IMG/VR virus record: IMGVR_UViG_3300013233_000246
Span: 29,126 to 93,125 of that record
DNA length: 64,000 bases
Source: a virus
Reading direction: 5' to 3' (one strand)
Shown here: positions 2,500 through 59,629 of the stretch, piece after piece
Layout of the letters: each line of letters begins with the position of its first letter
Position numbering within the stretch: position 1 is the first letter of the stretch
Program-made: the position numbers and the translations under genes
Notes under the pieces: generated by a model
Seen by the model: only the letters and a program-made list of their open reading frames with translations
The model's database searches: none
What the model was told of the DNA's origin: nothing

Positions 2500-3314
2500 T
2501 GTCAGTAGAAGTAATTAAAACATTTACCACCACATGTTATGGAGCAGTGCACGATGCAATAAATAATGATGCAGCTTTTTCTGCTGTAACATTAGAACAA
2601 GTTGTAGCATCAGGTGGAACAACCACATCATTTTTCTTTAGCACTGTATTAACTGGACCGGAAGATATAGCGCTAGACAATTTATTGGCTGTGTGGGTAT
2701 GCCCCCCTACTGTGTCACCGGACAGCCCTAATGGAACATTAGTATCCACAGAACTTGATACGGTAGATGTATCAGCAATAACAGAAGATTCATATATTAT
2801 ATATGATTTTTCCGCGAGTAAATGGGATATAATTCCAACTCCAACCAGTGGATCTTCTGGAAAACTATTACAGGTTAAAATGGGGGATATTCCTGCACAA
2901 TCAGGCACCACCAAAATACCAAAAGATTCCTCAGTGCCATTAATAACAGAGGGGTCTGAAATATGGTCGCAAACTTTCACGCCAACAAATACCGCAAGCG
3001 TAATACGAATAAATACTAACGTGACTGCATCCTTCTCTGAAGATAAAAAGAATATAGTTTTTGCAGTTTTTCGGGATAATGTGTGCATCGGAACAGCATT
3101 GCAAAATATAACTAAAAAGAAATCTGGATTTGTTGTATCATTATCTGTTACAGACTTACCTAATACTATAACTTCGGTTACGTATTCAGTAAGAGTGGGT
3201 AGAACTGGAAACAATGATGTGTGGTATATAAACGATATTCATAATACTCCAAATGCATTTGGTGGTACATTAATTAATAATGGATATTCTGTTGAAGAGT
3301 TGGAGATAATATAA
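2499..3314 (+). CDS. Probable appendage structural protein
   Basis: 271 residues, start overlapping the preceding stop. Beta-rich, with low-charge stretches and the D-S-Y-I-I-Y-D-F-S-A-S-K-W-D segment typical of fibre-associated repeats. The C-terminal half (W-S-Q-T-F-T-P-T-N onward) looks like a carbohydrate-binding-type beta-sandwich by pattern, and is shared in style with the next gene. No named family recognised. Context in a coupled appendage operon is the main evidence. Confidence 0.55.
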   Translation: MSVEVIKTFTTTCYGAVHDAINNDAAFSAVTLEQVVASGGTTTSFFFSTVLTGPEDIALDNLLAVWVCPPTVSPDSPNGTLVSTELDTVDVSAITEDSYIIYDFSASKWDIIPTPTSGSSGKLLQVKMGDIPAQSGTTKIPKDSSVPLITEGSEIWSQTFTPTNTASVIRINTNVTASFSEDKKNIVFAVFRDNVCIGTALQNITKKKSGFVVSLSVTDLPNTITSVTYSVRVGRTGNNDVWYINDIHNTPNAFGGTLINNGYSVEELEII

Positions 3315-5377: not shown

Positions 5378-7933
5378 ATGATAGTAAACTTTCAACAAGG
5401 TATTGTAAGCCACCAAGATGGTGGATTTTTGCAGGTTAATGGGGCTGTTGTTGGCATATTGGCCACCAACCGTCCTACCACCATTACAGTAGCGCACAGG
5501 CAGACAAATTATACACATTCAGAAGATTTGGCGCTGCCTGCTGCATGGATTGGACCATTCACGGAAATCAATTATTGGCTGTACTGGGATTTTAACCCAT
5601 TAGATTTCACTAGGACTTTTGGTAAAACAAGCCTAGAACCTGTAGCACAATCCATACCACCTGGTTCTGGAAATACGGATATTTTTGATGTCGTTGATGG
5701 TGCCGCAGGTATTGGTAAATTTATTGTTGAAGGGAAATTCGTTCTACCCATCAATAAGCCATTTGCGGTTTTAAACTCTACGGGCAATAATGGTTCATAT
5801 ACTGTTTTGGGAACCATTTATGATGCAAATACTGGACGAACCACAATAACAGTAAATGAAACAGTTCCTGATCCCGTGGCTGACGGTGAAGTAACCTTAG
5901 ATATTGATTCTTCAGGCAATCCATTGTTTGTTGATGGACGCCATTGGTTTGATACGTCTACAAATAAGCATTATATTCTCAATGGAACGCTGTGGCAGGA
6001 AGTAATACGTGTATTTGCTGCACAATTAATTAATGGTGTAACTTTAATAAGCTTTAGTCAGAATTCTGCCCTTGGTGATTTCACGGGAACGCAAATAGGT
6101 AGTAACGTACAAGTCCCTTCTGGAAGGATTTTGTTTGGCGAAGCAAGCAATCCAATACGTAGAGATAATGGAACATTTTTCACAACAGAAGATCAGTTTT
6201 TCACAAATCAATCTCGCGTTGATGCGTTGCGTTTAGAATCTAATGTTACGCGGGCACAATCTATAGAAGGTACGATACTTTCCCAATTTAGCATTGTGGC
6301 GTGGACAAATGATGGTCAAGTAACATCTGCGCAATATGATGATACGGGAAATACCGTTCTTGGTATTCTCACAGAAACAATACAAAATTTAGAAGTTGGA
6401 GCAATAATAACACAAGGATCTGTTACCAATCCTGATTGGAATTGGACTGGTGGAATAGATCCTATTCCTGTTGGTAGTCAATTGTGGGTACAGAATGGAC
6501 AATTAGTAACATCAAATCCAAACTTGAGTGACCCAATAACATACCCTGTACCCCATGTGCCAGTAGCACGGGTGTTGGATAAAGATACTATTATTTTTGA
6601 ACAAGGTCTTGGAGGAGTTGGTCCACGAGGTCCAATAGGTAGTATTAGTAATTTACCAATTGCAGATACTACGGATGCGGGCGCTGTAACATTATTAACA
6701 CCTTCATCCAATTCATTGCGTGGCATTGTAATTAGTGATACAGATTTTAGGTTGACCAATGCTCGACAACCATTGTCACATTCACATCAAGCATCCGATA
6801 TAGGATTTATTCCTGGTAGTGGTATTATATCTTCCGATGTTCAGAATGGTATGTTGGAGTTGGGAGCTGGTAAATTGGATTTGATTGGTGGTACTATGAC
6901 AGGACCACTTACATTATTTGCTAATCCATCCAATCCATTAGAAGCTGCAAATAAACAATATGTAGATAATTTAGTATCTGGTCTTATTTGGTTAGAACCT
7001 GTAGATTTAATTGACATGGTTTCGGATGCAGTAACTACACCGCCAACAAGTCCACAGCTGGGAGAAGCATATATAATTCCGTCTGGTGCAACGGGTGCAT
7101 GGTCAGCAATAGCACAAGGAAACGTAACATCGTGGGATGGCACGGCATGGCAGGATTTGGGTGCAGTTTCTACTTTTGACGCTTCGCCAAGATTTGGTAT
7201 TGCATTTTTTGTTTCTGCGACTCCATCGGGTTCTTTTGCTGGTAGAAAAAATGATATAGTAACATATTCTGGTTCTACCTTAAGTGGGTTTGAAACCCCA
7301 ATATCAAACAATGCCATATTTGTTCGTTCATCATTGTCTTCAAATGCGTTTAAACGATATGCGTTTAATGGAACTTCTTGGATATTGTTTAGTAGTGGTC
7401 AAAATTTAACAGCCGACGGAACTACAATAGAATTCAATACTAATGTGGTGAGTGTTAAGCCATTTGGCGCTGGCGGTACTGTTGATGCAGAATTGTGGCA
7501 AGGGTTACAACCAACGGATCTTGCTACAGTATATGCCCCTATTGTACATACACACACAATACCATATGATTTTGGTTTCTTTATAACAGGTCCCATACAA
7601 CCGAGCGTTCTTGTCGGTTCATTTATGGTTACAAGACCAATATCGGTTAAGTCACCAGCCGCTGAAAGTATAGCATATGCTAAAGTTGCTTCTACGGCTT
7701 CTTACACACTTGATATAGTACATGAAATACCAACTGTTAGTACAACAACCGTTGGTACAATTAATTTTCAAGCAGGTATTAATTATGGTATAATAACATG
7801 GGGATTTGATACTTCATTCTCCGCAGGTGATTTATTGCAAATAGCAACTCCATCGGGTACACCAGACAGTACTTTAGGAGAAATAACAATCACAATAGTT
7901 GGTTGTGCGTTGGCTTCAACCTGTACATTATAA
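5378..7933 (+). CDS. Large tail-fibre protein (paralogue of the 12.5 kb gene)
   Basis: 851 residues. The N-terminal ~110 residues (N-F-Q-Q-G-I-V-S-H ... Y-W-L-Y-W-D ... R-T-F-G) match the N-terminus of the protein starting at 12553, suggesting a shared virion attachment domain. Further on are classic fibre elements: S-H-S-H-Q-A-S-D-I and the M-T-G-P-L-T-L ... A-A-N-K-Q-Y-V-D repeat seen in many phage fibres. A second beta-rich domain follows to the C-terminus. The gene stands ~55 bp after the peptidase gene; a late-type element (GATAAATAC) lies around 5340. Confidence 0.75.
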   Translation: MIVNFQQGIVSHQDGGFLQVNGAVVGILATNRPTTITVAHRQTNYTHSEDLALPAAWIGPFTEINYWLYWDFNPLDFTRTFGKTSLEPVAQSIPPGSGNTDIFDVVDGAAGIGKFIVEGKFVLPINKPFAVLNSTGNNGSYTVLGTIYDANTGRTTITVNETVPDPVADGEVTLDIDSSGNPLFVDGRHWFDTSTNKHYILNGTLWQEVIRVFAAQLINGVTLISFSQNSALGDFTGTQIGSNVQVPSGRILFGEASNPIRRDNGTFFTTEDQFFTNQSRVDALRLESNVTRAQSIEGTILSQFSIVAWTNDGQVTSAQYDDTGNTVLGILTETIQNLEVGAIITQGSVTNPDWNWTGGIDPIPVGSQLWVQNGQLVTSNPNLSDPITYPVPHVPVARVLDKDTIIFEQGLGGVGPRGPIGSISNLPIADTTDAGAVTLLTPSSNSLRGIVISDTDFRLTNARQPLSHSHQASDIGFIPGSGIISSDVQNGMLELGAGKLDLIGGTMTGPLTLFANPSNPLEAANKQYVDNLVSGLIWLEPVDLIDMVSDAVTTPPTSPQLGEAYIIPSGATGAWSAIAQGNVTSWDGTAWQDLGAVSTFDASPRFGIAFFVSATPSGSFAGRKNDIVTYSGSTLSGFETPISNNAIFVRSSLSSNAFKRYAFNGTSWILFSSGQNLTADGTTIEFNTNVVSVKPFGAGGTVDAELWQGLQPTDLATVYAPIVHTHTIPYDFGFFITGPIQPSVLVGSFMVTRPISVKSPAAESIAYAKVASTASYTLDIVHEIPTVSTTTVGTINFQAGINYGIITWGFDTSFSAGDLLQIATPSGTPDSTLGEITITIVGCALASTCTL

Positions 7934-26630: not shown

Positions 26631-27499
26631 GATTTGTTGTGTTGGGTTTTTATAATTTGCCAACCTTTCCATTTCCCCCGCTGAAGTTTTTTACCATGTC
26701 TTTGTGCCCTTAGAAATGTATCAAATGGTGCTTTTAACTCAGCACAGACATCTCTCAGATATCCATTACCAACAAGTTCATTTTCAGGATTAAATACTTT
26801 ACAAAATACTGCTAATGGATTTTTTGCACCAACATTTCTGCTCATTTCCTGCCATGTCTTTTTTCTTTTTTTCATTAATGTGGGGTCTTGAAATGGATGC
26901 TTTCTTTGTTTAAATAAATCTCGTAAATTTTGTTTATGTGCTTCGGTATGAATATGTCCACCAGTTCTAGTTATCCCAGACCTCTTCATTGCTTCTTTGG
27001 ATGGTCTTGGTGGTCTGGTATTGTTTTTAATTGCCAGTTGTCTAAAATATTCGCGTAATTCTGGATGATTTTTATATCTTAGATTCATCCCATCACTTAT
27101 TTTCTTTTTGTGTTCTTCAGATAATGTTTTCCCTGTTCTTTGTGCAGACCACATCAATCTAGTTTTTTCGCAAGGAATCCATCCATAATTACCTTCACCA
27201 CCTTTTGTTAGATTGTATCCACTTTCAGTGATATGCGTGTTGTATTCTTCGATAAAATAATTCTCCATAATATTTAAAGTATGTGCTGCATCCATTGAAC
27301 AATAAATTACTTCAAAACTAAAATTTTCAATACCATATTTTCGTAAAGCTCTGTATATAGGTCTATGTTTTGTTTCTGTAGAATGGATATCTACTATATG
27401 TTTCTCCCAGCGTTTTTCTGGAGGGTTTTGGGATGTATATCCCACATATTGTTTGTTGTTAACCCTATTGACAATTCGGTAAATATAGTGTATAATCAT
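26627..27499 (-). CDS. GIY-YIG homing endonuclease
   Basis: 290 residues. N-terminal GIY-YIG domain: H-Y-I-Y-R-I ... K-Q-Y-V-G-Y-T ... a conserved R (K-R-W) and E (M-E-N-Y-F-I-E); a NUMOD3-like H-K-K-K-I-S region and a C-terminal DNA-binding helix region follow (about residues 120-285). It is on the opposite strand to its neighbours, and a plus-strand promoter overlaps its start, which marks it as an insertion between the 2H gene and the RNA ligase gene. Confidence 0.85.
   Translation of the reverse strand: MIIHYIYRIVNRVNNKQYVGYTSQNPPEKRWEKHIVDIHSTETKHRPIYRALRKYGIENFSFEVIYCSMDAAHTLNIMENYFIEEYNTHITESGYNLTKGGEGNYGWIPCEKTRLMWSAQRTGKTLSEEHKKKISDGMNLRYKNHPELREYFRQLAIKNNTRPPRPSKEAMKRSGITRTGGHIHTEAHKQNLRDLFKQRKHPFQDPTLMKKRKKTWQEMSRNVGAKNPLAVFCKVFNPENELVGNGYLRDVCAELKAPFDTFLRAQRHGKKLQRGKWKGWQIIKTQHNKS
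27468..27496 (+). promoter_or_regulatory. Sigma70-type promoter for RNA ligase 1
   Basis: TTGACA, 17-bp spacer, TATAAT, 43 bp upstream of the ligase start. It lies within the first codons of the opposite-strand endonuclease gene. Confidence 0.85.
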
Positions 27500-27538
27500 G
27501 GTACTTTCACTATTAATCGTATCGTTATTACTTTATTT

Positions 27539-28693
27539 ATGAATATTACAACAAACGACTACCAAAAAACCTTATATAGCAATTTGATGAATCTTGTTGA
27601 AGGAAATGAAGCGTTCTTCTTTAATGATTGGGAATTGGGTGGTAATTGGTACAGAAACTTCAATTATTGCTTGGCTTCATATACAGATTTCTGCGCTACG
27701 GACGCGCTAGAATGTCGTGGTATTATGTTTGAAATATCCGAAGGGGGGGGAAATGCTACAATGGTTCGTTTGGCATCTATTGGATTTCCGAAGTTTTTCA
27801 ATGCAGGCGAGAACCCATTTACCATGGATATAGATTTGTCCACTGTAGTTGAACTCGCAGATAAAGCAGATGGAAGTCTCATAACCACTTATATGGACGA
27901 TGGTGTTCTACGAGTTAAGACAAAAGGTTCATTGACTTCCGACCAAGCAATAAATGCTAACGCATTTCTTCGTCTTGATGAAAACGCACAGTTCCGTGCC
28001 GAATTAATTAAAGGCGAACAATTGGGATTTACTATTATTTGTGAATGGGTATCGAGCGCTCATCGCATAGTACTCCCATATTTTAAGCCAGAACTGCGGG
28101 TTCTTGGTGTGCGTTCTCGAGAAGATGGGTCGTTTATTCATTTTGATGATATAGATTGCGAACATTTCCCTGAAACGTTGGATCGTTGGACTAAGATAAT
28201 TGAAACTGATGATACGGAAGCATATATTAAATCTGTTTCTGATATGCAACACATAGAAGGTGTGGTAGCTCGCTTACCATCAGGTCAATATTTCAAAGTT
28301 AAAAGTTTGTGGTATCTCGCTCTCCATCGTACCAAAGATTCTATCACCATCCCACGTCGTTTATTTGAATGTGTGCTGGAAGAAGCATCCGACGACTTAC
28401 GTACATTGTTCCATGATGATGAACTTGCTATCAAGATGATCGAAGACATGGAAGCATTTGTTGAACAGAAGTACAATCACATGGTTGATTCTGTTGAACG
28501 TTTCTATGAACGCAACAAGCATATGGAACGCAAAGAATTTGCTATCCTTGGTCAAGAAGAACTGAACCGTATGTACTTCGGGTTGGCTATGCAACGTTAT
28601 GTAGGTAAGGACGTTGACTATAAAACTTTCTTGAAAGGTAAATGGAAACAACTTGGACTCACGGATGAGAAAACTGATTTTGAAAACGAGTAA
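27539..28693 (+). CDS. rnlA: T4 RNA ligase 1-type tRNA-repair ligase
   Basis: 384 residues (T4 Rnl1 374). The start is the first ATG after a perfect promoter. Nucleotidyltransferase motif I is K109-A-D-G; upstream E-C-R-G-I-M-F-E and downstream E-G-V-V-A-R ... F-K-V-K-S match T4 gp63 blocks, and the C-terminal ~130 residues correspond to the Rnl1 tRNA-binding domain. In T4 this enzyme, with Pnkp, reseals tRNA cut by host anticodon nucleases. No Pnkp is seen in this window. Confidence 0.92.
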   Translation: MNITTNDYQKTLYSNLMNLVEGNEAFFFNDWELGGNWYRNFNYCLASYTDFCATDALECRGIMFEISEGGGNATMVRLASIGFPKFFNAGENPFTMDIDLSTVVELADKADGSLITTYMDDGVLRVKTKGSLTSDQAINANAFLRLDENAQFRAELIKGEQLGFTIICEWVSSAHRIVLPYFKPELRVLGVRSREDGSFIHFDDIDCEHFPETLDRWTKIIETDDTEAYIKSVSDMQHIEGVVARLPSGQYFKVKSLWYLALHRTKDSITIPRRLFECVLEEASDDLRTLFHDDELAIKMIEDMEAFVEQKYNHMVDSVERFYERNKHMERKEFAILGQEELNRMYFGLAMQRYVGKDVDYKTFLKGKWKQLGLTDEKTDFENE

Positions 28694-40330: not shown

Positions 40331-40403
40331 GGTAGTATTAGCTTAATGTAAAGCCCCTCCCTGTGAAGGAGGAAAATATCGGTTCGTTCCCGATATACTA
40401 CCC
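40331..40403 (+). tRNA. tRNA-His(GUG)
   Basis: Acceptor GGTAGTA/TACTACC, C discriminator as in His, anticodon CCTCC-CTGTGAA-GGAGG. No encoded CCA. Confidence 0.85.
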
Positions 40404-40453
40404 CGCGTGAAACTATTGTTCCTCTTTGATAAATACGTCAAAGAGGAACAATT

Positions 40454-49294: not shown

Positions 49295-49687
49295 ATGTTT
49301 AATAATACATCTACTACCAGAGGTCAAGGTGATATAGGATTGACCTTTGCTATATATAAATTGTCTGAGATGGGATATACCGTATCTTTGCCAATAACAG
49401 ATAACAATATATACGATTTGATTGTTGATATTGCTGGTAAATTAAAATCAGTTCAAGTAAAAACATCTTCGGTAATTAGAGATTCTGGAAATTATGAAGT
49501 ACAATTGCGCCGTATTCGCACAAATACATCACAAACAAAAATACACAAGTTCGATAATACCGAAGTAGATATTTTGTTTGTAGTTTTGGAAAATGGTGAA
49601 AGTTATATGATACCATCTATAGAACTTACAGTAAAAAATACATTAACAATTTGTGAAAAGTATAAAAAATATAAAATGGAGAGGTAA
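49295..49687 (+). CDS. PD-(D/E)XK nuclease, probable homing endonuclease
   Basis: 130 residues. N-terminal T-R-G-Q-G-D-I-G ... L-S-E-M-G-Y-T-V, then Y-D-L-I-V-D-I ... V-Q-V-K-T-S: the D-x(n)-(E/Q)-x-K core of the family that includes the tRNA-intron endonuclease I-Ssp6803I. Its last codons lie inside tRNA-Ser(UGA), fitting a tRNA-linked homing enzyme. Confidence 0.72.
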   Translation: MFNNTSTTRGQGDIGLTFAIYKLSEMGYTVSLPITDNNIYDLIVDIAGKLKSVQVKTSSVIRDSGNYEVQLRRIRTNTSQTKIHKFDNTEVDILFVVLENGESYMIPSIELTVKNTLTICEKYKKYKMER

Positions 49688-49778
49688 GTCAAAAGATTCT
49701 GGGTAATGACAGCACTCTTGAAAAGTGATTATGTATAGTGATATATGTGTCAGGGTTCGAATCCCTGTCTCTCCTCCA
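49678..49778 (+). tRNA. tRNA-Ser(UGA), long D-arm
   Basis: GGAGAGG/TCTCTCC, anticodon GCACT-CTTGAAA-AGTGA, class II variable arm, CCA. The D-arm is longer than usual (GTCA...TGAC with 15-nt loop). Confidence 0.82.
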
Positions 49779-49877
49779 ATTGTAGCTAAGTCATAGACTT
49801 CCTTCTATAATTTTCACTTGATATGAAAATTAGCTTAATCGCTAATTAAAATAGTCCTGACAATTCCTACAATTTTT
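49779..49877 (+). repeat. Flank-pair element, copy 1 (no tRNA inside)
   Basis: Left part ATTGTAGCTAAGT...TTCTA (49779-49807) and right part ATAGTCCTGACAATTCC...TTTTT (49851-49877) recur around the permuted tRNA at 50446-50597. The outer ends pair (ATTGTAG/CTACAAT). The 43-bp middle here folds into AATTTTCA/TGAAAATT and TTAGC/GCTAA hairpins. Confidence 0.85.
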
Positions 49878-50348: not shown

Positions 50349-50444
50349 GGTGGGTTGACAGAGAGGCTTATTGTGCTTCGTTGGAAACGAAGTGTGTAGT
50401 GTAAAAGCACTGCACCATGGGTTCAAATCCCATACCCACCTCCA
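50349..50444 (+). tRNA. tRNA-Ser(GGA)
   Basis: Class II; GGTGGGT/ACCCACC, anticodon CTTCG-TTGGAAA-CGAAG, CCA. Confidence 0.9.
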
Positions 50445-50445
50445 A

Positions 50446-50597
50446 ATTGTAGCTAAGTTATAGACTTCCTTCTAAAACTTTGTAAAACTGGGAATGCAGC
50501 GTTCGACTCCTGCCATCCCCACCGATAAGATTATTGGGGGTGTAGCCAAATGGTAAGGCACCAGTCCGTGATAGTCCTGACAATTCCTACAATTTTT
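50446..50597 (+). tRNA. Circularly permuted tRNA-His(GUG)-like gene with flank-pair element, copy 2
   Basis: Order: left flank (50446-50474), 3' half (ACTGG, T-loop TTCGACT, acceptor CATCCCC then ACCG), 13-nt spacer, 5' half (GGGGGTG, D-arm GCC/GGC, CCAGT, CCGTGAT), right flank (from 50571). Acceptor GGGGGTG/CATCCCC (one G-U) and anticodon stem CCAGT/ACTGG pair between the halves. Joined, the anticodon loop is CCGTGAT (GUG). The same flanks occur at 49779-49877 without a tRNA. Confidence 0.72.
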
Positions 50598-50678
50598 GCC
50601 CCGCTACGCAAATTGGTAAAGCGGCAGTGCTAAGAACGCTGTGATAGTCTCCCGGTTCGACTCCGGGGTGGGGCACCA
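50598..50678 (+). tRNA. tRNA-Leu(AAG)
   Basis: Class II; GCCCCGC/GTGGGGC, anticodon CAGTG-CTAAGAA-CGCTG, CCA. Closely related to tRNA-Leu(CAA) at 47628. Confidence 0.85.
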
Positions 50679-50684
50679 ATTTGA

Positions 50685-50713
50685 TTGACTTTTTGTTATA
50701 AATGGCGTATAAT
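50685..50713 (+). promoter_or_regulatory. Sigma70-type promoter
   Basis: TTGACT, 17-bp spacer, TATAAT, 6 bp before an ATG. Confidence 0.7.
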
Positions 50714-50718
50714 GCCAT

Positions 50719-51232
50719 ATGTCTTATAATATCCCACAATTTGATAAATTATTGTCACGAAATGATTTCCGCGAAGCAGTTTTCGAGCGCGATAATCAAT
50801 TGGGTTAAAAATTTCTGGTCAAACTTTAATTTTGAAATTCCAAAAGACTGGCGTGTTTGTGGTGAAAATGTGTTTGCCGAACATTCTATCAAATACAATG
50901 AACTGGATTCTTACTTCTATGGATTTTCTATCTGGAATGATAAGAATGAATGTTTGTCTTGGGATGATACATTGGAATGGTTTAGTATTCTTCACCCCGA
51001 TATGAAGACTGTACCAGTTCTATATGACGGAATATTTGATGTTGATATTATCCAAGATTTGTGGGATGATTCAATGTACGATGAACACGAAGGCTATGTA
51101 CTTCGTTTGGCTGATAGTTTTCCAATGAGTAATTTTAGAACTTCCGCTGGAAAATTTGTCAGAAAGAATCATGTCAATACAGTCAAGCATTGGATGCATG
51201 GAAGACGAATGGTGGTTAACAAATTAAAATAG
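50719..51232 (+). pseudogene. RNA ligase gene with internal deletion and frameshift
   Basis: ATG 50719 gives 29 codons M-S-Y-N-I-P-Q-F-D-K ... F-R-E-A-V-F-E-R-D-N, the start of an HNH-like module often fused to phage RNA ligases, then stops. Another frame continues N-W-V-K-N-F-W ... V-C-G-E-N-V-F-A-E-H-S-I ... S-Y-F-Y-G-F-S-I-W-N ... E-G-Y-V-L-R-L ... F-V-R-K-N, the later ligase motifs. The KxDG lysine motif is missing, so the enzyme is inactive. A second ligase besides the intact one at 27539. Confidence 0.7.
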
Positions 51233-51591: not shown

Positions 51592-52383
51592 ATGAATTAT
51601 AAAAAACAATACGAATTGTTGATATCCACAAGACTTAAATTGCATCAAGAAAGAATCTACAATAAAAAACAAGGCGCATATTACGAAAAACACCACATTC
51701 TTCCCAAATGTATTGGTGGTGATAATAGCCCAACCAATTTATTATTACTAACTTCTCGTGAACATTTTATTGCACATTTGTTGTTGTGGAAAATACATGG
51801 TGGTAAATTATTCTATGCTATTTGGCTAATGATGCAACGCAACACCTCCTGTTGTAAAGATGTAACGATAACCAGTAGAAGATTTGCATATCTCCGCGAG
51901 GAACAAAAAAGATTGAATCGTAAAACTGGTAAAGATCATTGGAATTATGGAAAGCATCATACTATTAAATCTAAGCAAAAAATGCGTGAAGCTAAACTTG
52001 GAAAACCCAGTTCAAGAAAAGGCATAAGGTTAACAGAAAAAACGAAGGAAAAAATAAGAATAGCAAATGTAAATAAGAAGTTATCTGCTGCTCATAAGCA
52101 AAATATTTCAAATGCACTCAGGGTAAGTAAGCATCCAATGATGACAAATACGCAGCCATTTCAACATATGAAAGTAAAATCAAATAAAAATCTCCAAATG
52201 AAATGGATGAATGCCATGGAAATATACGATGTGTGGATAAATAACAATAAGCCAGGATATGTTAATATGCAAAAAATAACTAAAATATCTTCACTCAGAG
52301 CCATGATAAAGTGGTTTGATAAGTGGGGCAATCCTTCAAAAAATGATACGTGGATAGACTGGCGCAAAAATCACACACAATAA
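51592..52383 (+). CDS. HNH homing endonuclease with NUMOD3-type repeats
   Basis: 263 residues. N-terminal HNH Y-E-K-H-H-I-L-P-K-C-I-G-G-D-N ... L-L-T-S-R-E-H-F-I-A-H; then H-T-I-K-S-K-Q-K-M-R-E-A and T-E-K-T-K-E-K-I-R NUMOD3-like repeats and a basic tail. Paralogue of the 43512 gene with an extended DNA-binding part. Confidence 0.86.
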   Translation: MNYKKQYELLISTRLKLHQERIYNKKQGAYYEKHHILPKCIGGDNSPTNLLLLTSREHFIAHLLLWKIHGGKLFYAIWLMMQRNTSCCKDVTITSRRFAYLREEQKRLNRKTGKDHWNYGKHHTIKSKQKMREAKLGKPSSRKGIRLTEKTKEKIRIANVNKKLSAAHKQNISNALRVSKHPMMTNTQPFQHMKVKSNKNLQMKWMNAMEIYDVWINNNKPGYVNMQKITKISSLRAMIKWFDKWGNPSKNDTWIDWRKNHTQ

Positions 52384-52397
52384 GGAGAAAAAATGAA

Positions 52398-53432
52398 ATG
52401 AAAAGGAAAGCATTAATTTGTGGTATAAATTATCCAGGAACATCATACCCACTTAAAGGTTGTGTTAATGATGTAAATCTTATTGCAGATATGTTAACAA
52501 ATAATTTTGGATTTACTGATGCAAAAAATCGTAGGATGTTGACTGACGCTTCTGCAACAGCCGCTGCCATAAGAGAAAGACTTGAATGGTTGGTGGCAGA
52601 TGCACAACCTGGTGATATTCTTTGGTTTTCTTATTCTGGTCATGGTTCACAATTAATAAATCAAAAATATGATGATGCTGACTTTGAACCAGACAATAAA
52701 GATGAGATAATTTGTCCAATTGATTTGAATTGGCGAGATAAAATTATTCGCGATGATGAACTAAAAAGAATTTTTGACAAGGTCCCCAATGGCGTTAATC
52801 TTACAGTTTTGTTGGATTGTTGTAATTCTGGATCTGGTCTTGATCAACTTAACCAATATCAATCACTAGGACTGGGCGAAACCCGCGCATTAAAACAACC
52901 GAATTCAATAGTAGAAGGTTCGCGATGGTTGCCTATGCCAGATGATATTGCTAATCGTGGTAGAGGATTAGATTTGTCAATCCGTCCACGTTCAGTACAA
53001 TCAAGAAATGTTAATAATACTGGATTGTTGATTAGTGGTTGCCAAGCGCAACAGACCAGTGCCGACGCATGGATTGGCGGAAAATATATGGGGGCTGCTA
53101 CATATCATCTTGTTGACGCGCTTAAAAATTCTAACTATGATATGAGTTATAAAGATTTAATTGATACTATGAATAAATCTATGGTAACAAAAGGATTTTC
53201 ACAACGACCACAACTCGATGGTTCTGCTGATTTATTCCAAGCAAAATTCCTTGAACCGCTTCTTATTGGTACTGGATTGGAAGAACCAGTTACGGCACCA
53301 GTTGTAGTACCACCTGATGTTGAACTTACTTCTGAAGTTAAAGAACCAGAACCTAAAAAGAATTGGATGAAGATAGCAGCCATCACAGCAGGTTCAATAG
53401 CTATTGGTGTAGTCATATTCCTTTCTTTATAA
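52398..53432 (+). CDS. Metacaspase (peptidase C14-like) with C-terminal membrane anchor
   Basis: 344 residues. Type I metacaspase core: A-L-I-C-G-I-N-Y ... L-K-G-C-V-N-D-V, catalytic His in F-S-Y-S-G-H82-G-S-Q, catalytic Cys in L-L-D-C-C142-N-S-G-S-G, an acidic D-E-I-I-C-P-I-D loop and I-I-R-D-D-E-L as in Ca-dependent metacaspases. The N-terminus has no signal peptide; residues ~322-344 are hydrophobic after K-K-N-W-M-K, a tail anchor. The start is the second of two overlapping ATGs; the first (52393) opens only ATG-AAA-TGA. Follows the HNH gene by 14 bp. Confidence 0.88.
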   Translation: MKRKALICGINYPGTSYPLKGCVNDVNLIADMLTNNFGFTDAKNRRMLTDASATAAAIRERLEWLVADAQPGDILWFSYSGHGSQLINQKYDDADFEPDNKDEIICPIDLNWRDKIIRDDELKRIFDKVPNGVNLTVLLDCCNSGSGLDQLNQYQSLGLGETRALKQPNSIVEGSRWLPMPDDIANRGRGLDLSIRPRSVQSRNVNNTGLLISGCQAQQTSADAWIGGKYMGAATYHLVDALKNSNYDMSYKDLIDTMNKSMVTKGFSQRPQLDGSADLFQAKFLEPLLIGTGLEEPVTAPVVVPPDVELTSEVKEPEPKKNWMKIAAITAGSIAIGVVIFLSL

Positions 53433-58927: not shown

Positions 58928-59629
58928 ATGTCAGAAGATCTATTCGCTGATGCTAAAGAAAAAATTAAAGCCAAAATTGAAGCAGCCAAATCGGACGGTA
59001 CAGACGAAATCGTATGTATTATTGACCGTTCTGGTTCTATGTGGAGCATTAAAGAAGATGCCGCCGGAAGTTTAAATTCGTTTGTCTCTGATCAGGCAGC
59101 AGTAGGTGACGCCAATTTAACAATTGTTGAATTTGATAACAACATTGAAACTGTTTGTGATCGAGTAAATATTAACGAAGCAAAAGAATATAAACTTGAA
59201 CCAGGGGGTTCTACGGCATTATTAGATGCTATCGGTTCCGTTGTTGCAAATAATCTCAAATATAATGCACTAGATGGTAAAACTGTCGTAGTTATTATTA
59301 CTGACGGTGGTGAAAATGCTAGTCAAGAATGGTCACGCGATGATGTATTTTCGTTGATAGAAGAACGAAAAGCCGATGGTTGGGAATTTTTATTCCTTGC
59401 TTCTAATCAAGATGCTATCACCACGGGCATGAAGTATGGTTTTGATATGGATCAAACTGTAAGCTTTGCTAATGATGCTAGAGGTATTCAAGCAGCAAAT
59501 GCTATGGCTTCTGCATATACAACGACAACCCGTGCTTATTCCAAGGGCGAAGCAATGGCTATTAAGAAACAATATGTAGATATGAATGTGTCAGACCTAT
59601 CAGATACTGGTGCCGTCGATAATAAATAA
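58928..59629 (+). CDS. von Willebrand factor A domain protein
   Basis: 233 residues. VWA fold with MIDAS motif D33-R-S35-G-S37 and downstream G-G-S-T and V-I-I-T-D-G-G; AAGGAG ribosome site. It forms a single-gene unit between a perfect promoter and a terminator. Such domains bind protein partners through a metal ion; often paired with AAA+ ATPases, and an (interrupted) AAA+ gene is at 24513. Confidence 0.82.
   Translation: MSEDLFADAKEKIKAKIEAAKSDGTDEIVCIIDRSGSMWSIKEDAAGSLNSFVSDQAAVGDANLTIVEFDNNIETVCDRVNINEAKEYKLEPGGSTALLDAIGSVVANNLKYNALDGKTVVVIITDGGENASQEWSRDDVFSLIEERKADGWEFLFLASNQDAITTGMKYGFDMDQTVSFANDARGIQAANAMASAYTTTTRAYSKGEAMAIKKQYVDMNVSDLSDTGAVDNK

What the first reader, a model, noticed from the sequence alone, without database searches (positions are those of the whole stretch)
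50446..50597. Circularly permuted tRNA-His gene with recurring flanks
The 3' half of a tRNA precedes its 5' half. Acceptor (GGGGGTG/CATCCCC) and anticodon (CCAGT/ACTGG) stems pair only between the two halves, and joined they give a normal-sized tRNA with loop CCGTGAT (GUG). The flanks recur at 49779-49877 around a different middle, so this looks like an element able to carry cargo. Permuted tRNAs are known in some algae and archaea; I know of none from phages. A tandem duplication followed by two partial deletions could also give this layout.
Basis: partly seen in the sequence, partly recalled or inferred. Interest (0 to 1): 0.92.

Follow-up and report, generated by a model that had tools for sequence, protein, structure and literature searches.

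The report
Phage tRNA-mimic Y-like RNA
What looks like a tRNA gene with its halves swapped is most likely a phage small RNA of the Y RNA type, in which a tRNA look-alike is held on a hairpin stem for a Ro60-like protein; it matters because the same design turns up, unannotated, beside a Ro60-like protein family in many phages.

Summary
At 50445-50597 a tRNA 3' half precedes a 5' half; the acceptor (7/7) and anticodon (5/5) stems pair only between halves, and the flanks recur at 49778-49877. The tRNA-His reading is not supported. The supposed anticodon loop is the junction to a second stem: the exact ends of the RNA pair, and the unit fits between a tRNA-Ser end and a tRNA-Leu start. A covariance model of ordinary tRNAs with halves swapped finds the same layout in phage YrlA-type Y RNAs near Ro60 genes and beside DUF2828, whose predicted fold's best PDB match is Ro60. 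A relative found through the downstream ligase gene has RNA ligase, a Y RNA array (three permuted-tRNA units) and Ro60 within about 5 kb. Best reading: a divergent YrlA-like tRNA-mimic Y RNA with a tRNA-less sibling, probably partnered by a Ro60-like protein. Weak point: neither TROVE, Ro60-vWA nor DUF2828 is on the 93-kb fragment, and the flanks lack the sequence signatures of both groups. By-product: an apparently undescribed DUF2828-linked Y-like RNA family with strong covariation.

The parts
50445..50597 (+). Y-like RNA with tRNA-mimic module (copy 2, YrlA-like)
   Evidence: Fits between tRNA-Ser (50349-50444) and tRNA-Leu (50598-50678); R1 hit 50487-50565, 32.8 bits
50445..50452 (+). P1 5' strand AATTGTAG, pairs with 50587-50594 CTACAATT
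   Evidence: same pairing in the MFE fold
50587..50594 (+). P1 3' strand CTACAATT, followed by TTT
50457..50466 (+). P2 5' strands GTTA and GACT, pair with 50578-50581 TGAC and 50573-50576 AGTC
   Evidence: formed in the MFE fold of copy 1; the C/T change between copies keeps pairing (G-C to G-U)
50573..50581 (+). P2 3' strands AGTC and TGAC
50487..50491 (+). anticodon-stem position, 3' strand ACTGG (pairs with 50561-50565)
50496..50513 (+). T-arm (one bulged C)
   Evidence: sub-threshold Rfam tmRNA_permuted 17.7 bits over 50496-50544
50514..50542 (+). acceptor hairpin CATCCCC - 15 nt - GGGGGTG
   Evidence: 7/7 pairs
50545..50559 (+). D-arm GCC-AAATGGTAA-GGC
50561..50565 (+). anticodon-stem position, 5' strand CCAGT
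49778..49877 (+). sibling RNA without tRNA module (copy 1, YrlB-like): same P1/P2 handle, hairpin middle
   Evidence: fold -17.2 kcal/mol, z -3.1 against 300 mononucleotide shuffles
49682..49777 (+). tRNA-Ser(UGA)-like gene abutting copy 1
   Evidence: sequence; Rfam tRNA-Sec 29.1 bits, below gathering
50349..50444 (+). tRNA-Ser(GGA), gives the 5' boundary of copy 2
50598..50678 (+). tRNA-Leu, gives the 3' boundary of copy 2
50702..51232 (+). remnant of an HNH + RNA ligase gene (PF09414), internal part incl. ligase motif I missing; intact relatives lie near Y RNA/Ro60 or DUF2828 modules

Best explanation
Window 50445-50597 most likely encodes a phage Y RNA of the YrlA type: a stable RNA whose ends pair (P1), followed by a bulged region and P2, and capped by a tRNA-mimic domain (T-arm, acceptor hairpin and D-arm, in the only order that lets the anticodon-stem position open into the handle). 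It is probably released from a tRNA transcript by the enzymes that trim the tRNA-Ser 3' end and the tRNA-Leu 5' end. The handle would bind a Ro60-like ring protein (TROVE or DUF2828 type) and the tRNA domain would act as decoy, gate or tether for tRNA-recognising factors during RNA repair or decay. Copy 1 at 49778-49877 would be the tRNA-less sibling (YrlB-like). Shown: order, pairings, boundaries, sibling, and the same architecture beside Ro60 and DUF2828 in other phages. Inferred: processing, protein partner, function.
For: R1, made only from rotated ordinary tRNAs, gives 41-59 bit hits outside ordinary tRNAs in 7 of 10 phage Ro60 loci fetched (L027-L032, L034); six of the seven also match Rfam YrlA below its gathering score. 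Relative L007, found through the gene just downstream of the window element, has within about 5 kb the RNA ligase gene, seven elements with Y RNA-like stems, three carrying permuted tRNAs, and a TROVE + vWA_Ro60 protein. CcrColossus and CcrPW have several R1 hits just upstream of a TROVE gene. G001, LR756508 and J2-1 lack TROVE but have permuted elements plus DUF2828; the model of G001's DUF2828 protein has Ro60 (1yvr, E 3e-6) as its only PDB match below 0.001. In 80 DUF2828 loci, 34 of the 61 best R1 hits examined overlap no ordinary tRNA and 25 of those lie within 700 nt upstream of DUF2828; P1 and the tRNA stems covary. Like G001 and several DUF2828 loci, the window unit abuts tRNA genes. 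It has a tRNA-less sibling with the same handle, as do L007 and G001.
Against: No TROVE, vWA_Ro60 or DUF2828 on the 93-kb fragment. The window flanks lack both the TROVE-type motif (YCGRAG...GTTAYC) and the DUF2828-type motif (TAGGNNNN...CAGCAA...CCTG). Rfam YrlA gives only 13.5 bits here. The R1 score (32.8) is lower than in most relatives and the T-stem has a bulge, so the module could be decaying. The neighbouring ligase gene is a deletion remnant, so this region does lose sequence. Only two copies exist, so P1/P2 of the window itself cannot be tested by covariation; no close relative was found.
Confidence: 0.74

Rival explanations
1. A genuine circularly permuted tRNA gene: the flanks bring the ends together, the transcript is cut there, circularised (for example by phage RNA ligase 1, present at 27365-28693), and RNase P and 3' trimming in the linker give a functional tRNA.
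For: Full cloverleaf potential with 7 bp acceptor, 5 bp anticodon and 3 bp D stems; linker of 15 nt; the phage encodes a T4 Rnl1-like ligase.
Against: No U33 in the loop position; encoded ACCG instead of CCA; intact tRNA-His elsewhere; closing stem and loop sequences are poor or variable in relatives, which sit next to Ro60-like genes; no bulge-helix-bulge was recognised at the junction.
Confidence: 0.06
2. A relic: tandem tRNA duplication followed by partial deletions left a 3' half before a 5' half, without function.
For: T-stem bulge; adjacent RNA ligase gene is an internal-deletion remnant; tandem tRNA junctions mimic the layout.
Against: Breakpoints fall at the anticodon-loop position and are enclosed by a paired handle shared with copy 1; the same design recurs with covarying stems in other phages.
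Confidence: 0.1
3. A structured RNA with a tRNA-mimic cap that does not bind a Ro60-like protein, for example an anticodon-nuclease decoy or a handle for another phage protein.
For: No Ro60-like gene on the fragment; handle sequence differs from both handle types seen in relatives.
Against: The other phages examined here with a clearly permuted element encode TROVE or DUF2828, except RcXuper, whose neighbouring protein was not identified.
Confidence: 0.1

Closest known systems
YrlA / bacterial Y RNA (Rfam RF02553; Ro60/Rsr partner)
   Same: Ends paired into a stem with a bulged region; tRNA-like domain with T-arm, acceptor hairpin and D-arm in permuted order; tRNA-less sibling as in yrlBA; in relatives linked to Ro60 and RNA ligase genes
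   Different: Below the Rfam score (13.5 bits, gathering 69); full 7-bp acceptor stem and 15-nt linker; Ro60-site sequence not recognisable; no Ro60 gene on the fragment
DUF2828-linked permuted-tRNA RNAs of phages
   Same: P1 at the ends, unpaired 5' strand, permuted tRNA, tRNA genes abutting on one or both sides in several loci
   Different: They have P1 TAGGNNNN/NNNNCCTG and the motif CAGCAA; the window has neither
Circularly permuted tRNA genes of algae and archaea (PMC3978253, PMC3218864)
   Same: Order of halves; breakpoint at the anticodon loop here
   Different: Those are processed through a circular intermediate by splicing endonuclease at a bulge-helix-bulge motif; here no such motif recognised, no U33, no CCA, Y-like handle instead
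Permuted tmRNA (RF04321)
   Same: 3' acceptor strand and T-arm before 5' acceptor strand
   Different: 17.7 bits only (gathering 47); D-stem and anticodon-stem present, no mRNA-like part

Membership tests
YrlA-type bacterial Y RNA | tRNA-like domain: T-arm, acceptor hairpin, D-arm in permuted order | tested here: met
   R1 32.8 bits
YrlA-type bacterial Y RNA | 5' and 3' ends paired into a lower stem with bulges | tested here: met
   P1 8 bp, bulged/internal loop, P2 4+4 bp
YrlA-type bacterial Y RNA | Ro60-binding site sequence (bulged C, conserved residues on both strands; in phage Y RNAs seen here YCGRAG and GTTAYC) | tested here: inconclusive
   C-TAAG and AATTC at the right places, but GTTAYC absent
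YrlA-type bacterial Y RNA | Ro60 (TROVE) or Ro60-like gene in the same genome | tested here: inconclusive
   absent from the 93-kb fragment; genome incomplete
YrlA-type bacterial Y RNA | Match to Rfam RF02553 at gathering score | tested here: not met
   13.5 bits vs 69; the phage YrlA-like RNAs beside Ro60 tested here also score below 69
YrlA-type bacterial Y RNA | Physical binding to Ro60 | not testable with these tools
   needs co-purification
Circularly permuted tRNA gene | 3' half before 5' half, complete cloverleaf on joining | tested here: met
   (one bulge in the T-stem)
Circularly permuted tRNA gene | Decodable anticodon loop (U33, 7 nt) | tested here: not met
   loop CCGTGAT has C33; junction undefined
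Circularly permuted tRNA gene | Splicing signal (BHB) and splicing endonuclease | tested here: inconclusive
   no BHB seen by inspection; endonuclease not searched
Circularly permuted tRNA gene | Mature joined RNA and circular intermediate | not testable with these tools
   needs RNA sequencing

The most novel reading that the evidence does not exclude
The RNA is both: a phage permuted tRNA that is cut from its handle, circularised by the phage's own RNA ligase and matured into a working tRNA. This would be the first permuted tRNA gene of a virus known to me.
Probability: 0.05. Interest if true: 0.9.

Novelty: new variant of a known kind. Interest (0 to 1): 0.58.

Why it matters
It turns an apparent 'first viral permuted tRNA' into a Y RNA problem: phages carry a modular RNA that displays a tRNA look-alike. 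It also shows that a permuted-tRNA search is a practical detector for such RNAs, which annotation misses: none of the permuted elements checked reached any Rfam cut-off. The search uncovered a family beside DUF2828, a Ro60-like protein, in many phages. If confirmed, this extends the Ro60/Y RNA system to a second protein family and ties it to phage RNA repair and tRNA defence.

Tried and rejected
Exact search of the 3' flank in IMG/VR: none. blastn of the window element in phages: no convincing relative. Search by the ORF between the copies: no relative. Group I/II intron, known ribozyme or tmRNA: Rfam gave nothing relevant at this place. Anticodon read as Tyr (TTGTAAA from the 3' side) instead of His: considered, but meaningless if no loop forms. 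R1 score alone as proof: rejected, because tandem tRNA junctions reach 45 bits; overlap with ordinary tRNAs was used as filter. Window vWA protein 58928-59629 as Ro60: only generic vWA matches. The neighbouring 'RNA ligase' as a working part: rejected, it is a deletion remnant.

Full report
Observation. The sequence at 50445-50597 was read directly. A T-arm and the acceptor strand CATCCCC precede GGGGGTG, a D-arm and CCAGT. The acceptor pairs 7/7 and the anticodon-stem position 5/5, only across the halves. The 5' flank (30 nt, one C/T difference) and 3' flank (27 nt, identical) recur at 49778-49807 and 49851-49877 around another middle; shuffled sequence gives no match. ARAGORN and Rfam call ordinary tRNAs on both sides, but nothing here above threshold. 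The unit runs from the base after tRNA-Ser (50444) to the base before tRNA-Leu (50598). Its ends pair: AATTGTAG (50445-50452) with CTACAATT (50587-50594). Two 4-bp helices follow (GTTA/TGAC and GACT/AGTC). Copy 1 folds with the same handle.

Corrections to the finding. The T-stem has a bulged C. The supposed anticodon loop CCGTGAT lacks U33. The 3' end is ACCG. The phage has an intact tRNA-His at 40332-40404. So 'tRNA-His' is not supported.

A neutral detector. A covariance model (R1) was built from 14 ordinary tRNAs of this and other phages with their halves swapped and a random linker. It hits the window at 50487-50565 with 32.8 bits. Junctions of neighbouring ordinary tRNAs score up to 45 bits, so hits were filtered for overlap with ordinary tRNAs; the window hit overlaps none.

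Relatives through the next gene. The ORF directly downstream (50702-51232) is an RNA ligase fragment (PF09414). Its relatives in IMG/VR led to L007. There, between the ligase gene (2693-3097) and a TROVE + vWA_Ro60 protein (5679-7349; it also matches solved Ro60 and Rsr), lie seven elements of the form GGGYCGAA...TTATCA...AACTTRCC or close to it. Three carry permuted tRNAs. Rfam matches the permuted middles to YrlA (29.7 and 29.4 bits) and the stems to nematode sbRNA/Y RNA, all below gathering. This is the organisation of bacterial Y RNAs, in which YrlA carries a tRNA-like domain (PMC7790460, which describes the rsr-yrlBA-rtcBA operon; Ro60 site described in PMC4726728).

Test on known Ro60 phages. 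351 phage records encode a relative of the L007 Ro60. Of ten loci fetched (L027-L036), seven have R1 hits of 41-59 bits outside ordinary tRNAs (L027-L032, L034); six of these also match YrlA below the gathering score. CcrColossus and CcrPW have several R1 hits, the best 58.8 and 57.6 bits, just upstream of a TROVE gene. So a rotated-tRNA model recovers phage Y RNAs; the 'permuted tRNA' layout is a signature of YrlA-type RNAs.

Phages without TROVE. G001 (an IMG/VR relative), the huge phage LR756508 and Pseudoalteromonas J2-1 have permuted elements (62.0, 57.5 and 58.5 bits) but no TROVE. All three encode DUF2828. In G001 it lies about 1.4 kb after the intact RNA ligase gene. A model of the G001 protein (24-sequence alignment, mean pLDDT 75.7) has Ro autoantigen 1yvr as its only PDB match below 0.001 (E 3e-6, probability 1.00; TM about 0.4, so fold-level only). 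A search for this protein gave 80 IMG/VR loci. Of the 61 best R1 hits examined there, 34 overlap no ordinary tRNA, and 25 of those lie within 700 nt upstream of DUF2828; the weakest of them may be chance, and some contigs are near-identical pairs. Most share TAGGNNNN-NTNCAGCAA...permuted tRNA...AAAAGT-NNNNCCTG. On 19 sequences, 96.9% of cells pair against 71% in shuffles, and 20 of 24 pairs change on both sides, five of eight in P1. None of the permuted elements in the 12 loci scanned reaches a Rfam cut-off. G001 has four siblings with covarying P1, three without the tRNA.

Fit of the window. It shares the architecture, the boundaries set by tRNA genes, the pair of RNAs with and without the tRNA module, and the linkage to the RNA ligase family. 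It differs in handle sequence: neither GTTAYC of TROVE-type RNAs nor CAGCAA of DUF2828-type RNAs is present, although C-TAAG and AATTC stand where CGAAG and AACTT stand in L007. The fragment (93 kb of an unknown whole) has no TROVE, vWA_Ro60 or DUF2828. Therefore the claim is 'works like a YrlA RNA, probably a divergent member', not a settled membership.

Mechanism. Shown: order, pairings, boundaries, sibling, recurrence in relatives. Inferred: release by tRNA 3' and 5' processing; binding to a Ro60-like ring; the tRNA mimic acting as decoy, gate or tether for tRNA-recognising enzymes. PMC7790460 proposes the YrlA tRNA-like domain as a possible competitive inhibitor of an anticodon nuclease, which would make sense in a phage with RNA ligase and many tRNAs.

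Novelty. Phage Y RNAs are known: PMC12282133 states that they have been identified in mycobacteriophages, citing Chen et al. 2014 (that paper was not held), and PMC7824862 notes a TROVE protein with a tRNA-like partner in some jumbo phages. No held paper found reports a permuted tRNA in a phage or links DUF2828 with TROVE. The window RNA is a new variant; the DUF2828-linked family appears undescribed in this library, which lacks most subscription papers.

Noticed in passing
window 50702-51232 and 50722-50808: The RNA ligase gene is an internal-deletion remnant: relatives have about 340-368 aa (HNH + ligase); here the first codons (KLLSRNDFREAVFERDNQLG, other frame) join the ligase C-terminal part, without the ligase motif I.
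   Followed up: yes
L098-L177, L004:7847-9271: DUF2828 proteins of phages look Ro60-like (best PDB match 1yvr) and have unannotated permuted-tRNA RNAs with covarying P1 upstream in many contigs.
   Followed up: partly
window 52350-53432: A caspase-fold (Peptidase_C14, E 6e-34) protein encoded inside the phage tRNA cluster.
   Followed up: no
window 27365-28693: T4 RNA ligase 1-like protein (phrog_562, E 1e-97).
   Followed up: no
L007 2510-3121: The RNA ligase frame begins with an intein-like C-terminal end (NGILVHN/C) just before the ligase part.
   Followed up: no
L007 4993-5063 and 5180-5230: Y RNA elements contain TCACTTTTAATGA, resembling a tRNA-Lys(UUU) anticodon stem-loop.
   Followed up: no
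L031 5452-5508: Pistol ribozyme (56.8 bits) in the tRNA/Ro60 region of Gordonia phage GMA2.
   Followed up: no
L080 1505-1574: Rhodobacter phage RcXuper has a 66-bit permuted-tRNA element after a permuted tmRNA and before an unidentified 720-aa protein; no TROVE or DUF2828 found.
   Followed up: partly
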